A stretch of DNA of 64,000 nucleotides from Ilumatobacter sp. (lineage in GTDB: Bacteria > Actinomycetota > Acidimicrobiia > Acidimicrobiales > Ilumatobacteraceae), in NCBI RefSeq assembly GCF_030065885.1, contig NZ_JASJCS010000003.1:1-64000 (forward strand), written 5' to 3'. Numbering within the stretch: the first letter of the stretch is position 1; each line of letters opens with the position of its first letter. The translations under genes were made by a program, and so were the position numbers. Positions 1-26,851 of the stretch are shown here, in pieces. Below the pieces are notes generated by a model that saw nothing but the letters and a program-made list of their open reading frames with translations, made no database searches and was not told the origin of the DNA.

Positions 1-1
1 C

Positions 2-28
2 ACGGCCGGCCTCATCGACCTGACTTGA
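2..28 (+). CDS. C-terminal tail of an upstream gene cut by the window edge
   Basis: The frame starting at base 2 reads eight sense codons (TAGLIDLT) and then TGA at 26-28. It lies on the same strand just upstream of tpiA, where actinobacteria usually carry pgk, so a phosphoglycerate kinase tail is possible. Eight residues are too few to identify the family. The palindrome at 29-59 begins at the very next base after this stop codon. Confidence 0.3.
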   Translation, partial: TAGLIDLT

Positions 29-59
29 GTCGCGAGATGTGCCTGGCACATCTCGCGAC
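29..59. repeat. 31-bp perfect palindrome, copy 1 of 2
   Basis: Two 15-base arms, GTCGCGAGATGTGCC and its exact reverse complement, surround a single central T. It fills the gap between the upstream stop codon and the tpiA ribosome binding site (GGAGGAG at 61-67). A related copy with the same length and the same central T is at 26164-26194. No T-run follows, so it is not a typical intrinsic terminator. It could be a dispersed repeat, a protein-binding palindrome or an mRNA processing hairpin. Confidence 0.85.
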
Positions 60-71
60 GGGAGGAGACTC

Positions 72-848
72 ATGAGCGACCGCAAGCCCATCATCAGCGG
101 CAACTGGAAGATGAACCTCAACCACTTCGAGGCCATCCAGACGGTGCAGAAGCTGCACTACTCGCTGCCGAAGGAGGTCTACGACTCGGTCGACGTGAGC
201 GTGCACCCGCCGTTCACCGACATCCGCAGCGTGCAGACGGTCATCGAGGCCGACGACCTCGACATCCTGCTCGGCGCCCAGCACTGCCACTGGGAGGAGA
301 CGGGGGCGTTCACCGGCGAGGTGTCGCCGGCGTTCCTCGCCAAGCTCGACGTGCAACTCGTGGTGTGCGGGCACAGCGAGCGGCGTGACCTGTTCGGTGA
401 GACCGACGAGATGGTCAACCAGAAGGTCCACGCCATCTTCAAGCACGCGATGACGCCGATCATGTGCTGCGGCGAGTCGCTGGACGAGCGTGAGGCCGGC
501 GAGACCGAGGCCAAGGTGCTGTCCCAGGTCGCCGCAGGTCTCGATCGCCTGAAGGCCGACCAGGTGGCGTCGATGGTGATCGCCTACGAGCCGATCTGGG
601 CGATCGGCACCGGCAAGACCGCCACCGCCGATGATGCACAGACGGTGTGCAACGCGATACGCAACGCGGTCGCAGCCCAGTTCGGTGCCGATGCGGCCGC
701 CGCGGTGCGGATCCAGTACGGCGGTTCGGTCAAGGCCGGCACGACCGAGGAGCTGATGGCCCAGCCCGACGTCGACGGTGCGCTGGTCGGCGGGGCCAGC
801 CTCGATCCGGACGAGTTCGCCCGGATCGTTCAGTTCGCGATCGCCTGA
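72..848 (+). CDS. tpiA: Triosephosphate isomerase
   Basis: Interconverts dihydroxyacetone phosphate and glyceraldehyde 3-phosphate in glycolysis and gluconeogenesis, in the cytoplasm. The 258-residue product has the usual TIM length. It shows the catalytic lysine in GNWKMN (Lys13), catalytic His101 in CGHSERR, catalytic Glu173 in AYEPIWAIGTGK, and the phosphate-binding YGGSVKAG. The ORF track begins at base 39 inside the palindrome. I chose ATG 72 because GGAGGAG lies 4 nt upstream and the protein then begins MSDRKPIISGNWK as in the family. In most actinobacteria secG follows tpiA closely. Here a five-gene ABC operon lies between them. Confidence 0.97.
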   Translation: MSDRKPIISGNWKMNLNHFEAIQTVQKLHYSLPKEVYDSVDVSVHPPFTDIRSVQTVIEADDLDILLGAQHCHWEETGAFTGEVSPAFLAKLDVQLVVCGHSERRDLFGETDEMVNQKVHAIFKHAMTPIMCCGESLDEREAGETEAKVLSQVAAGLDRLKADQVASMVIAYEPIWAIGTGKTATADDAQTVCNAIRNAVAAQFGADAAAAVRIQYGGSVKAGTTEELMAQPDVDGALVGGASLDPDEFARIVQFAIA

Positions 849-2953: not shown

Positions 2954-3031
2954 CGTGGCGTCAGGTCGTGAGGCCTGACGCCACGCAACACCGACAAGGG
3001 GGGCCGACCGGCAATCGGTCGGCCCCCCTTT
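2954..3031 (+). terminator. Two consecutive hairpins after the binding-protein gene
   Basis: The first hairpin has 12-bp arms (CGTGGCGTCAGG, 2954-2965, with 2974-2985) and an 8-nt loop. The second has 15-bp perfect arms (2996-3010 with 3016-3030) around GCAAT and ends in CCCCCCTTTCGTT. The second is a convincing intrinsic terminator. It would uncouple the abundant binding protein from the permease genes or attenuate read-through into them. Confidence 0.85.
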
Positions 3032-24445: not shown

Positions 24446-25456
24446 GTGCACCGGATCATCGATTGCCACGGCCACTACACCACCACACCGCCGGGCGTGG
24501 CTGCGTGGCGTGACGCACAGAAGGCCGCCGTGGCCGCCGACGCGGCGTTCGTGGGCGAGAAGGGCGCCCTGGCGGTCACCGACGACGAGATCCGCGAGAG
24601 CCTGGAGTCGGCACAGCTCGCGTTCCAGCGCGAACGAGGGTCCGACCTGACGATCTTCTCGCCGCGGGCGTCGTGGATGGCGCACCACATCGGCAACGAG
24701 CACACGTCCCGGTTCTGGACCGAGCACCAGAACGAACTGATCCGCCGCGTCTGCGACCTGTACCCGGACAACTTCGCACCCGCCTGCCAGCTGCCGCAGT
24801 CGCCCGGTGCGTCGATCGACGGGTCGGTCCATGAGCTCCGGCGCTGCATCGACGAGATGGGCTTCATCGGCTGCAACGTCAACCCCGACCCGAGTGGCGG
24901 CTTCTGGACCGGGCCGCCGCTGTTCGACCGATACTGGTGGCCGCTGTGGGAAGCGATGATCGAGCTCGACGTTCCTGCGATGATCCACGTGTCCGCGGCC
25001 TGCAACCGGAGCTTCCACACCACGGGTTCGCACTACCTCGGTGCCGACACGACCGCCTTCATGCAGGCGCTGGCGTCCGGGTTCATGGCCGACTTCCCGG
25101 GTCTCCGGTGGATCATTCCGCACGGCGGTGGTGCCGTGCCGTACCACTGGGGTCGCTTCACCGGCATGGCCGCCGACCAGGGATGGGACTTCGATGCGCT
25201 GCTCGACCACATCTGGTTCGACACGTGCGTGTACCACCAGCCCGGCATCGACCTGCTGCTCGACGTGGTGCCCACCGAGAACGTGCTGTTCGCCTCCGAG
25301 ATGGTCGGCGCGGTGCGTGGCGTCAACCCCGACACGGGTCGACACTACGACGACACCAAGGTGTACCTCGACGCTTCGTCGCTCGACGACGACGGCCGAC
25401 GGCTCGTCTTCGAAGAGAACGCCCGCAAGGTCTTCCCGAGATTGGAGCTGCCATGA
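24446..25456 (+). CDS. ligJ: 4-oxalomesaconate hydratase (amidohydrolase type)
   Basis: Hydrates the enol form of 4-oxalomesaconate to 4-carboxy-4-hydroxy-2-oxoadipate. The 336-residue amidohydrolase begins VHRIIDCHGHYTTTP and carries FSPRASWMAHHIG, NVNPDPSGGFWTGPPL, MIHVSAACN, IPHGGGAVPYHWGRF and FASEMVGAVRGVNP, the pattern of LigJ. GTG 24446 has ACGGAGGGA upstream. The larger track ORF (from 23960) is a shadow of pobA. The stop overlaps the ligK start. Confidence 0.94.
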   Translation: MHRIIDCHGHYTTTPPGVAAWRDAQKAAVAADAAFVGEKGALAVTDDEIRESLESAQLAFQRERGSDLTIFSPRASWMAHHIGNEHTSRFWTEHQNELIRRVCDLYPDNFAPACQLPQSPGASIDGSVHELRRCIDEMGFIGCNVNPDPSGGFWTGPPLFDRYWWPLWEAMIELDVPAMIHVSAACNRSFHTTGSHYLGADTTAFMQALASGFMADFPGLRWIIPHGGGAVPYHWGRFTGMAADQGWDFDALLDHIWFDTCVYHQPGIDLLLDVVPTENVLFASEMVGAVRGVNPDTGRHYDDTKVYLDASSLDDDGRRLVFEENARKVFPRLELP

Positions 25457-26160
25457 ACCAGCCTTCCCACGGCCGCCACGTGGTGGTCACCGAGATCGAC
25501 CGGGCCGGCATCGCGACCGTCGACGGGCTTGCGTCGATGGGCACGGCGACGGTGCACGAGGCGATCGGGCGGCGCGGGTTCCTCGGCGCCGAGCTGCGCC
25601 CGATCCAGCAGGACGTGCGGGTCGGCGGCTCGGCGGTCACGGTGTCGAGCCACCCCGGCGACAACATGATGATCCACGCCGCGGTCGAGGTCTGCCGGCC
25701 GGGCGACGTCCTCGTCGTGACGACCACCGCACCGTCGACGCACGGCATGTTCGGCGAGCTGCTGGCGACGTCGCTGATGACGCGAGGCGTTCGAGGTCTC
25801 GTCATCGACGCCGGCGTGCGCGACACGTCCGAGCTGCGCGACATGGGCTTCCCGGTCTGGACGCGCCACGTGTCGTGCCAGGGGACGGTCAAGGCGACGC
25901 CGGGTTCGGTCAACGTGCCGGTATCGATCGGTGGGGTCGTCATCGAGCCGGGCGACGTGGTGTGCGCCGACGACGACGGCGTCGTGGTCGTGTCGCTCGG
26001 CGAGGCCGAGTGGGCGCTTGCGCAGTCGCAGGCCCGGCTCGACAAGGAGGCGGCAACCCGCGCCCGGCTCGATGCCGGTGAGCTGGGCCTCGACTTCTAC
26101 GGCCTGCGCGACGAGCTCGCCGACCTCGGCGTCGAGTACGTCGACCGCCTCGACCCCTGA
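25453..26160 (+). CDS. ligK: 4-carboxy-4-hydroxy-2-oxoadipate aldolase
   Basis: Class II aldolase of the RraA-like family, splitting the last pathway intermediate to pyruvate and oxaloacetate. The 235-residue protein shows SHPGDNMMIHAAVEVCRPGDVLVV, MTRGVRGLVIDAGVRDTSELRDMGFPVW and the GDVVCADDDGVVVV strand. The metal/phosphate-handling D-x-G-x-R-D signature is intact. ATG overlaps the ligJ stop. The 31-bp palindrome starts 3 nt after its own stop codon. Confidence 0.94.
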   Translation: MNQPSHGRHVVVTEIDRAGIATVDGLASMGTATVHEAIGRRGFLGAELRPIQQDVRVGGSAVTVSSHPGDNMMIHAAVEVCRPGDVLVVTTTAPSTHGMFGELLATSLMTRGVRGLVIDAGVRDTSELRDMGFPVWTRHVSCQGTVKATPGSVNVPVSIGGVVIEPGDVVCADDDGVVVVSLGEAEWALAQSQARLDKEAATRARLDAGELGLDFYGLRDELADLGVEYVDRLDP

Positions 26161-26163
26161 CAC

Positions 26164-26194
26164 GTCGCGAGTTGTGTCTGACGCAACTCGCGAC
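26164..26194. repeat. 31-bp palindrome, copy 2 of 2
   Basis: Arms GTCGCGAGTTGTGTC and GACGCAACTCGCGAC surround a single T. Fourteen of 15 positions pair as Watson-Crick and the remaining one is T:G. It fits exactly between the ligK stop (26158-26160) and the stop of the convergent gntR (26195-26197). Compared with copy 1 at 29-59, two positions changed on both arms so that pairing is kept. Confidence 0.85.
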
Positions 26195-26851
26195 TCAGGT
26201 GGGGCGGCGGGCGTCGCGCCAGCGGTGCAACACCTCGATCACCGACTGCAGGTGGTCGCGCATCGCAGCAGCTGCGGCGTGCTCGTCTCCGGCGACCACC
26301 GCTTCGACGATCGATGCGTGCTGCCCGAGCGACTCGCCGGGGCGCCCCGGCATCAGCGCGAGTCGATACTGATGATGTGCAGCGCGGTTGCGCAGGTTCG
26401 CGACGAGCTGACTCGCGATCGTGTGCCCACTCATCTCCCGCAGGCGGCGGTGGAGCAGGGCGTTGAGCTCGGAGTAGTCGCCGTCGCGATCCTCGGCGAC
26501 CGCGGCGCGCATGTCGTCGACGATGCCGCGTAGCTCATCGCGCTCGTCGCTGGTGGCGTGATGCGCGGCCTGCGCTGCGATCAAGCCTTCGAGCGCGGCC
26601 CGGGCCTCGGTGATCTGGATCGCCTCCTCGATCGAGATCCGACGGACCGTTGCGCCCCGGTTCGCCTCCCGTTCGACCAGCCCCTCCGACGTCAGCTCGA
26701 CGAGGGCCGACCGCACGGCGGCCCGCCCGCACCGGTACAGCTCGGCCAGTGGGACCTCGAGCAGCCGGTCGCCCGGCTCGAAGCGACCGGTGAGGATGTC
26801 CTGCCGGAGCTCGTCGGTCACGGAGCCTGTGGCCATGTCACGAGAAGTCAT
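26195..26851 (-). CDS. GntR-family regulator, FCD domain
   Basis: A 218-residue transcription factor. The winged helix is DELRQDILTGRFEPGDRLLEVPLAELYRCGRAAVRSALVELTSEGLVEREANRGATVR. The FCD effector domain follows, with EARAALEGLIAA, the metal-binding-type LLHRRLREMSGH and QHASIVEAVVAGD. It ends the galD-ligI-gntR operon, overlapping the ligI stop by 14 nt. ATG 26836 is an alternative start. The likely targets are the two TGTYGACA-AGAT-TGTCGACA sites at 24361 and 28851. A pathway intermediate such as protocatechuate or 2-pyrone-4,6-dicarboxylate is the plausible inducer. Confidence 0.92.
   Translation of the reverse strand: MTSRDMATGSVTDELRQDILTGRFEPGDRLLEVPLAELYRCGRAAVRSALVELTSEGLVEREANRGATVRRISIEEAIQITEARAALEGLIAAQAAHHATSDERDELRGIVDDMRAAVAEDRDGDYSELNALLHRRLREMSGHTIASQLVANLRNRAAHHQYRLALMPGRPGESLGQHASIVEAVVAGDEHAAAAAMRDHLQSVIEVLHRWRDARRPT

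What the first reader, a model, noticed from the sequence alone, without database searches (positions are those of the whole stretch)
29..59. 31-bp palindrome placed exactly between a stop codon and a ribosome site
A perfect palindrome with 15-base arms and one central base begins on the base after the upstream stop and ends just before the tpiA ribosome site. There is no T-tract. A structured copy at 26164 has the same geometry. Such tight fit suggests an inserted repeat family or a conserved processing/regulatory element.
Basis: seen in the sequence. Interest (0 to 1): 0.6.

Follow-up and report, generated by a model that had tools for sequence, protein, structure and literature searches.

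The report
RAYT-type palindromic repeat at gene ends
The perfect 31-base palindrome before tpiA is one of a few dozen dispersed copies of a small, probably once-mobile DNA repeat in this Ilumatobacter genome; it is related to the repeats that flank a known kind of domesticated transposase, and such copies tend to sit right against stop codons.

Summary
Observation confirmed: window 29-59 is a perfect palindrome (15-nt arms, 1-nt centre) between a TGA (26-28) and the tpiA ribosome site; 26164-26194 is a second copy (one T.G pair) filling the gap between two convergent genes. The genome (Ilumatobacter) has 23 copies at up to 3 mismatches, control 0. Congeners carry their own versions with compensated arms around a constant GTGYC-N-GRCAC core; I collected 142 distinct copies from 6 genomes. 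RAYT-type Y1/HUH transposase genes in the genus are flanked on both sides by such palindromes. In G067 the flanks of its only RAYT are the same subfamily as its 37 dispersed copies. The syntenic site of copy 26164 in G079 is empty (8-nt gap). So this is a RAYT-associated repetitive palindrome of the TIR/TIRYT type, without the GTAG tag of classical REPs. Copies abut stop codons far more than random placement predicts (44 of 72 versus 15), and end bases often complete the stop codon; both habits are published for REPs. No RAYT with the window's own arms was found, and G038 has copies but no RAYT. No U-tract and no transcript-strand G.U bias: a terminator role is unproven. New member of a known kind.

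The parts
29..59 (.). Palindromic repeat, copy 1: GTCGCGAGATGTGCC-T-GGCACATCTCGCGAC
   Evidence: Direct reading and inverted-repeat scan; family in genome; the junction upstream of tpiA is also occupied in G038, G019 and G079
26164..26194 (.). Palindromic repeat, copy 2: GTCGCGAGTTGTGTC-T-GACGCAACTCGCGAC, between convergent stop codons
   Evidence: convergent genes end at 26160 (+) and 26195 (-); the syntenic gap in G079 is 8 nt and empty
26..28 (+). TGA stop codon of the upstream reading frame, directly abutting copy 1
   Evidence: upstream gene identity not determinable (28 nt only)
72..848 (+). tpiA (triosephosphate isomerase), ribosome site at about 60-67
   Evidence: Codon-bias gene call; 83-91% identical proteins in congeners
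25453..26160 (+). RraA-like aldolase gene ending 3 nt before copy 2
26195..26836 (-). GntR/FCD regulator gene whose stop codon abuts copy 2

Best explanation
The palindrome is a non-autonomous repetitive extragenic palindrome of a family associated with RAYT-type Y1 (HUH) transposases in the genus Ilumatobacter. Each subfamily is a near-perfect 31-bp (sometimes 33-35 bp) palindrome with a constant GTGYC-N-GRCAC core and subfamily-specific outer arms. Transposase genes carry one palindrome on each side. The transposase would recognise the hairpin formed by single-stranded DNA and copy or move it into new sites (inferred from the known behaviour of TnpA_REP and IS200/IS605 enzymes, not shown here). 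Copies survive between genes, preferably right at stop codons, where their first bases often complete the stop codon and reading frames stay intact. When transcribed they form a strong hairpin (about -25 kcal/mol) directly behind the stop codon, which could affect mRNA 3' ends or termination; that effect is inferred and untested.
For: 23 copies in the genome, control 0. Species-specific compensated arms in congeners. RAYT genes (Y1_Tnp above cut-off; only NCBIfam match REP-associated tyrosine transposase) flanked by palindromes of the same core and geometry at five loci in three genomes. In G067 one flank of the only RAYT is identical to the commonest dispersed copy and the other differs at 2 bases; 37 pattern matches there. 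The G054 contig-51 RAYT flanks match a small dispersed subfamily with a few changes. Invariant NHxH and Y-x-x-x-N motifs. Empty syntenic site in G079. pgk-tpiA junction filled in G038, G019 and G079, overlapping or nearly touching genes in G067, G054, G090 and G101. Stop-codon adjacency 44/72 versus 15.1 expected; convergent enrichment in G000 14/27 versus 17%. REPs are published to lie close to 3' ends and to supply TAG stop codons (PMC3733652).
Against: No RAYT with GTCGCGAG arms was found in the assembly (90.7% complete), and single-contig genome G038 has 23 collected copies but no RAYT by three searches. No GTAG or CGTC tag. Copy number is low (tens, not hundreds). NF047646 scores stay below the curated cut-off (45-62 versus 80 bits). 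Only one clean filled/empty pair was compared for the window's own subfamily.
Confidence: 0.85

Rival explanations
1. A U-tract-less bidirectional transcription terminator or 3'-end mRNA-stabilising hairpin, kept by selection at each gene end; its dispersal is secondary.
For: Strong hairpin on both strands (-25.2 kcal/mol for copy 1). Position at 3' ends and in convergent gaps. In codirectional gaps of at least 100 nt, 11 of 19 copies lie within 4 nt of the stop versus 0.5 expected. Some junctions are occupied in several species with different arms.
Against: No U-tract. Mismatched pairs are not biased to G.U on the transcript strand (17 wobble-keeping versus 25 wobble-breaking, P = 0.28). The repeat carries one fixed core sequence instead of any stable hairpin. 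Copy 1 lies before a codirectional gene with its own ribosome site. A terminator of ordinary type exists nearby (2996-3030). Orthologous junctions often lack it.
Confidence: 0.25
2. A palindromic operator or chromosome-organising site recognised as double-stranded DNA by a dimeric protein; the copies are its binding sites.
For: Near-invariant symmetric core GTGYC-N-GRCAC with odd centre in 142 copies (partly by construction of the search).
Against: Sites lie behind genes and are absent from divergent promoter gaps in G000 (0 of 27, although such gaps make up 34% of intergenic bases). Outer arms change in pairs between species. The same palindromes bracket transposase genes.
Confidence: 0.07
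3. Chance palindromes or assembly artefacts at contig ends.
For: Copy 1 and one other copy (C88:3-33) lie at contig starts.
Against: Most copies are internal; counts exceed controls; single-contig genome G038 has the same family.
Confidence: 0.01

Closest known systems
TIR repeats and TIRYT/TIRtron genes (Di Nocera et al. 2013, PMC3733652; corresponds largely to TnpA_Y1 subclass 2.1 in Quentin et al. 2018, PMC6006769, and RAYT group 1)
   Same: Y1/HUH transposase of about 280-320 aa flanked on both sides by inverted repeats that are not GTAG-tagged; the repeats form moderately abundant dispersed families; some are self-complementary. RAYTs of G079 and G090 in this genus have repeats with a GGTCAGACC centre that resembles the published GGGGWSAS motif.
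   Different: Here the flanking repeat is itself a near-perfect 31-bp palindrome with core GTGYC-N-GRCAC. The host is Ilumatobacter, while the 2018 survey reported only subclass 1.1 (IS200-type) genes in Actinobacteridae and no REP-like sequences near subclass 2.1 genes. No DnaA_C or HTH Pfam match was found in the C-terminal part.
GTAG-tagged REPs and RAYTs (E. coli, Pseudomonas, Stenotrophomonas; PMC2817692, PMC3733652)
   Same: Short extragenic palindromes, subfamily-specific transposase, preference for 3' ends and convergent gaps, repeat ends supplying TAG stop codons, occasional tandem pairs.
   Different: No unpaired GTAG or CGTC tag, near-perfect palindromicity, copy number in the tens.
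Bidirectional intrinsic terminator
   Same: GC-rich hairpin between convergent stop codons.
   Different: No U-tract on either strand; fixed core sequence; the same repeats flank transposase genes.

Membership tests
RAYT-associated repetitive palindromes (REP sensu lato, including TIR type) | 20-40 bp palindrome dispersed in intergenic space | tested here: met
   23 copies in G000, control 0; 142 distinct copies in 6 genomes, few inside genes
RAYT-associated repetitive palindromes (REP sensu lato, including TIR type) | RAYT gene bracketed by copies of the repeat, dispersed copies sharing its arms | tested here: met
   Met in G067 (37 copies; one flank identical to the commonest copy, the other with 2 differences) and, with a few copies, in G054 contig 51
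RAYT-associated repetitive palindromes (REP sensu lato, including TIR type) | Cognate RAYT for the window's own GTCGCGAG subfamily | tested here: inconclusive
   G000 has two RAYTs with other arms but the same core; none with GTCGCGAG; assembly 90.7% complete
RAYT-associated repetitive palindromes (REP sensu lato, including TIR type) | Location behind genes, close to stop codons, in convergent and unidirectional gaps | tested here: met
   published pattern in PMC3733652
RAYT-associated repetitive palindromes (REP sensu lato, including TIR type) | Mobilisation by the transposase | not testable with these tools
   Only indirect: empty site in G079, species-specific arms
GTAG/CGTC-tagged REP superfamilies | Unpaired GTAG or CGTC tetranucleotide at one end | tested here: not met
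   Flank composition shows no tag; end bases are paired on both sides
RAYT / REP-associated tyrosine transposase (the flanked genes) | HUH and Y-x-x-x-N motifs | tested here: met
   Invariant N58 H59 x H61 and Y118 xxx N122 in nine proteins; Y1_Tnp above cut-off
RAYT / REP-associated tyrosine transposase (the flanked genes) | NCBIfam NF047646 equivalog cut-off | tested here: not met
   45-62 bits against 80 required, though it is the only matching family
TIRYT / subclass 2.1 | C-terminal HTH-like extension (Bac_DnaA_C, HTH_23, HTH_28) | tested here: not met
   A C-terminal extension beyond the Y1 core is present, but no Pfam match to it
TIRYT / subclass 2.1 | Flanking inverted repeats with GGGGWSAS | tested here: not met
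   Core here is GTGYC-N-GRCAC; related GGTCAGACC repeats accompany the RAYTs of G079 and G090
Intrinsic (Rho-independent) terminator | Hairpin followed by U-tract | tested here: not met
   Hairpin present, following bases GGGAGGAG and TCAGGTGG

The most novel reading that the evidence does not exclude
In Ilumatobacter a RAYT/TIRYT lineage uses complete near-perfect palindromes instead of tagged REPs and places or keeps them exactly at stop codons, whose last bases they replace, so that the repeats have become a common 3'-end module re-used at the same gene junctions by different species.
Probability: 0.25. Interest if true: 0.55.

Novelty: new member of a known kind. Interest (0 to 1): 0.35.

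Why it matters
It extends RAYT-associated palindromes to Ilumatobacter and gives a clean natural system: five loci with transposase and matched palindromes in one genus, one genome (G067) whose only RAYT has flanks of the same subfamily as 37 dispersed copies, and one (G038) with copies but no enzyme. That makes open questions about REPs (what fixes arm specificity, why they sit at stop codons, whether they are kept after the enzyme is lost) directly comparable between close species. For annotation it explains hairpins without U-tracts at gene ends in this genus.

Tried and rejected
Exact degenerate 31-mer in the reference genome collection: none, since other species have changed arms and the own genome is left out. 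Core pattern GARTTGTGCCNGGCACAAYTC found Ilumatobacter and its relatives plus five single hits in other phyla, with arms of 7 to 11 perfect pairs and no HUH candidate beside them, treated as chance. Viral contigs: none. Rfam: only a tRNA in the window. Solved structures: the RAYT profile found none, one protein gave only weak hits to transposases. Class-wide search of 198 genomes: multi-copy palindromes only in this genus, one stray hit in another. RNA-level selection tested by the strand of G.U mismatches: no signal. A long query around four G067 copies gave mostly paralogous hits and no clean empty sites. The first gene calling was trained on antisense ORFs and discarded. Integron attC sites and CRISPR were considered from memory only and not pursued because the transposase link explained the anatomy.

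Full report
Observation. Bases 29-59 form a perfect palindrome with one central base, directly after a TGA at 26-28 and just before the ribosome site of tpiA (ATG 72). The copy at 26164-26194 keeps 14 Watson-Crick pairs and one T.G; it lies between two convergent genes, an RraA-like aldolase ending at 26160 and a GntR/FCD regulator ending at 26195. Two such hits in the window compare with 0.01 in shuffles.

Family in the genome. The 5.04-Mb assembly (200 contigs) holds 12 copies of the exact octamer pair (control 1) and 23 copies of the degenerate 31-mer with up to three mismatches (control 0). The consensus is GTCGCGAGTTGTGTC-W-GACACAACTCGCGAC; the window's first copy belongs to a GTCGCGAGATGTGCC variant.

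Family in the genus. Names of matching reference contigs place the genus as Ilumatobacter. Congeners carry their own versions: G038 RTCRCGAGTTGTGCC, G054 GTTGGGAGTTGTGCC and GTTACCAAAGGTGCC, G079/G019 GTGTCGAATNGTGCC, G067 GTTACGAAACGTGCC. Across 142 distinct copies, most outer pairs occur as two or more different Watson-Crick pairs, while GTGYC-N-GRCAC is nearly constant. The search required at least 12 of 15 pairs and a core-like centre, so pair counts are partly by construction; the different arms as such are not. A class-wide scan of 198 genomes found multi-copy families only in this genus.

Link to a transposase. Eight of ten genomes of the genus encode Y1_Tnp proteins. Five of these genes, in G067, G054 (two) and G000 (two), have a palindrome of the same core and geometry on each side, with gene-specific arms. 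In G067, one flank of the only RAYT is identical to the commonest dispersed copy and the other differs from it at two bases; 37 matches of the degenerate pattern were found in that genome, nearly all of this subfamily. In G054 the RAYT on contig 51 has GTTACC flanks that match a small dispersed subfamily with a few changes. The proteins share the HUH motif (NHxH), Y-x-x-x-N and W-S-S, match Pfam Y1_Tnp above its cut-off, and match only NF047646 REP-associated tyrosine transposase in NCBIfam, below its cut-off. The RAYT on G000 contig 198 is syntenic with that on G054 contig 82 although their palindromes differ, which suggests vertical inheritance of the gene with drifting repeats. No RAYT with the window's GTCGCGAG arms was found, and G038 has no RAYT at all by three searches, so for the window's own subfamily the enzyme is inferred: lost, missing from the assembly, or acting in trans.

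Insertion. In G079 the convergent gene pair corresponding to copy 2 is separated by 8 nt instead of 34 and has no palindrome. At pgk-tpiA the palindrome is present in G038, G019 and G079, while in G067, G054, G090 and G101 the genes overlap or nearly touch. G000 has a palindrome before tpiA too, but its upstream 28 nt do not look like pgk. A tpiA tree resolves only G067+G054 and, weakly, G079+G019, so whether the junction was filled once or several times is open. Several other junctions are occupied in two species with different arms.

Position. In codirectional gaps 44 of 72 copies start within 4 nt of the upstream stop, with 15.1 expected for random placement in the same gaps; none of 200,000 simulations reached 44. 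In gaps of 100 nt or more it is 11 of 19 versus 0.5, which ribosome-site avoidance alone does not explain; missed small genes could explain some of the longest gaps. Gene ends come from my own codon-bias caller. In G000 14 of 27 copies lie in convergent gaps (17% of gaps) and none in divergent gaps; the gap baseline was taken from stretches fetched around copies and the window, so it is not a random sample. The end bases often complete the stop codon: TAG 12 times in G067, TGA 5 times in G038. Both habits are described for REPs: closeness to 3' ends and TAG stop codons supplied by repeat ends (PMC3733652).

Function. The hairpin is strong on both strands (-25.2 kcal/mol for copy 1) but lacks a U-tract. 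If the RNA hairpin were selected, mismatches should be G.U on the transcript strand more often than A.C; the counts are 17 versus 25 (P = 0.28), so there is no such signal. A downstream effect on termination, mRNA stability or ribosome release is possible and untested.

Classification. Tagged REPs are excluded by the missing tag. The nearest published kind is the TIR family of TIRYT genes, whose repeats are not GTAG-tagged and sometimes self-complementary (PMC3733652; PMC6006769). Two of its reported features, the GGGGWSAS motif and a C-terminal HTH match, are not met here. I therefore call it a RAYT-associated palindromic repeat that works like the TIR type, a new member of a known kind.

Noticed in passing
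window 2996-3030: A perfect 15-nt inverted repeat with 5-nt loop and A/T ends (AAGGGGGGCCGACCG...CGGTCGGCCCCCCTT), 73 nt behind a solute-binding protein gene: looks like an ordinary bidirectional intrinsic terminator.
   Followed up: partly
window 1-28: The contig starts here; the visible upstream frame reads TAGLIDLT*, unlike pgk ends of relatives, so the upstream gene of tpiA in this genome is uncertain.
   Followed up: partly
L099 1005-1080 and L105 2286-2341: RAYTs of G090 and G079 are accompanied by longer double palindromes with a GGTCAGACC centre, a second repeat type in the same genus.
   Followed up: no
L153, L154, L156 (G067 contig 138): Tandem pairs of palindromes overlapping by one base (30-bp period), and clustering of copies on one 110-kb contig.
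   Followed up: no
G038 (single-contig genome): 23 collected palindrome copies, many perfect, but no RAYT gene in three searches.
   Followed up: yes
142 copies in 6 genomes: In codirectional gaps the central base is A on the coding strand 44 times and T 26 times (P = 0.04), a weak orientation bias.
   Followed up: partly
L121 (G123), pgk-tpiA junction: Contains GGGGTCAGGCAC, possibly a decayed palindrome of the other type.
   Followed up: no
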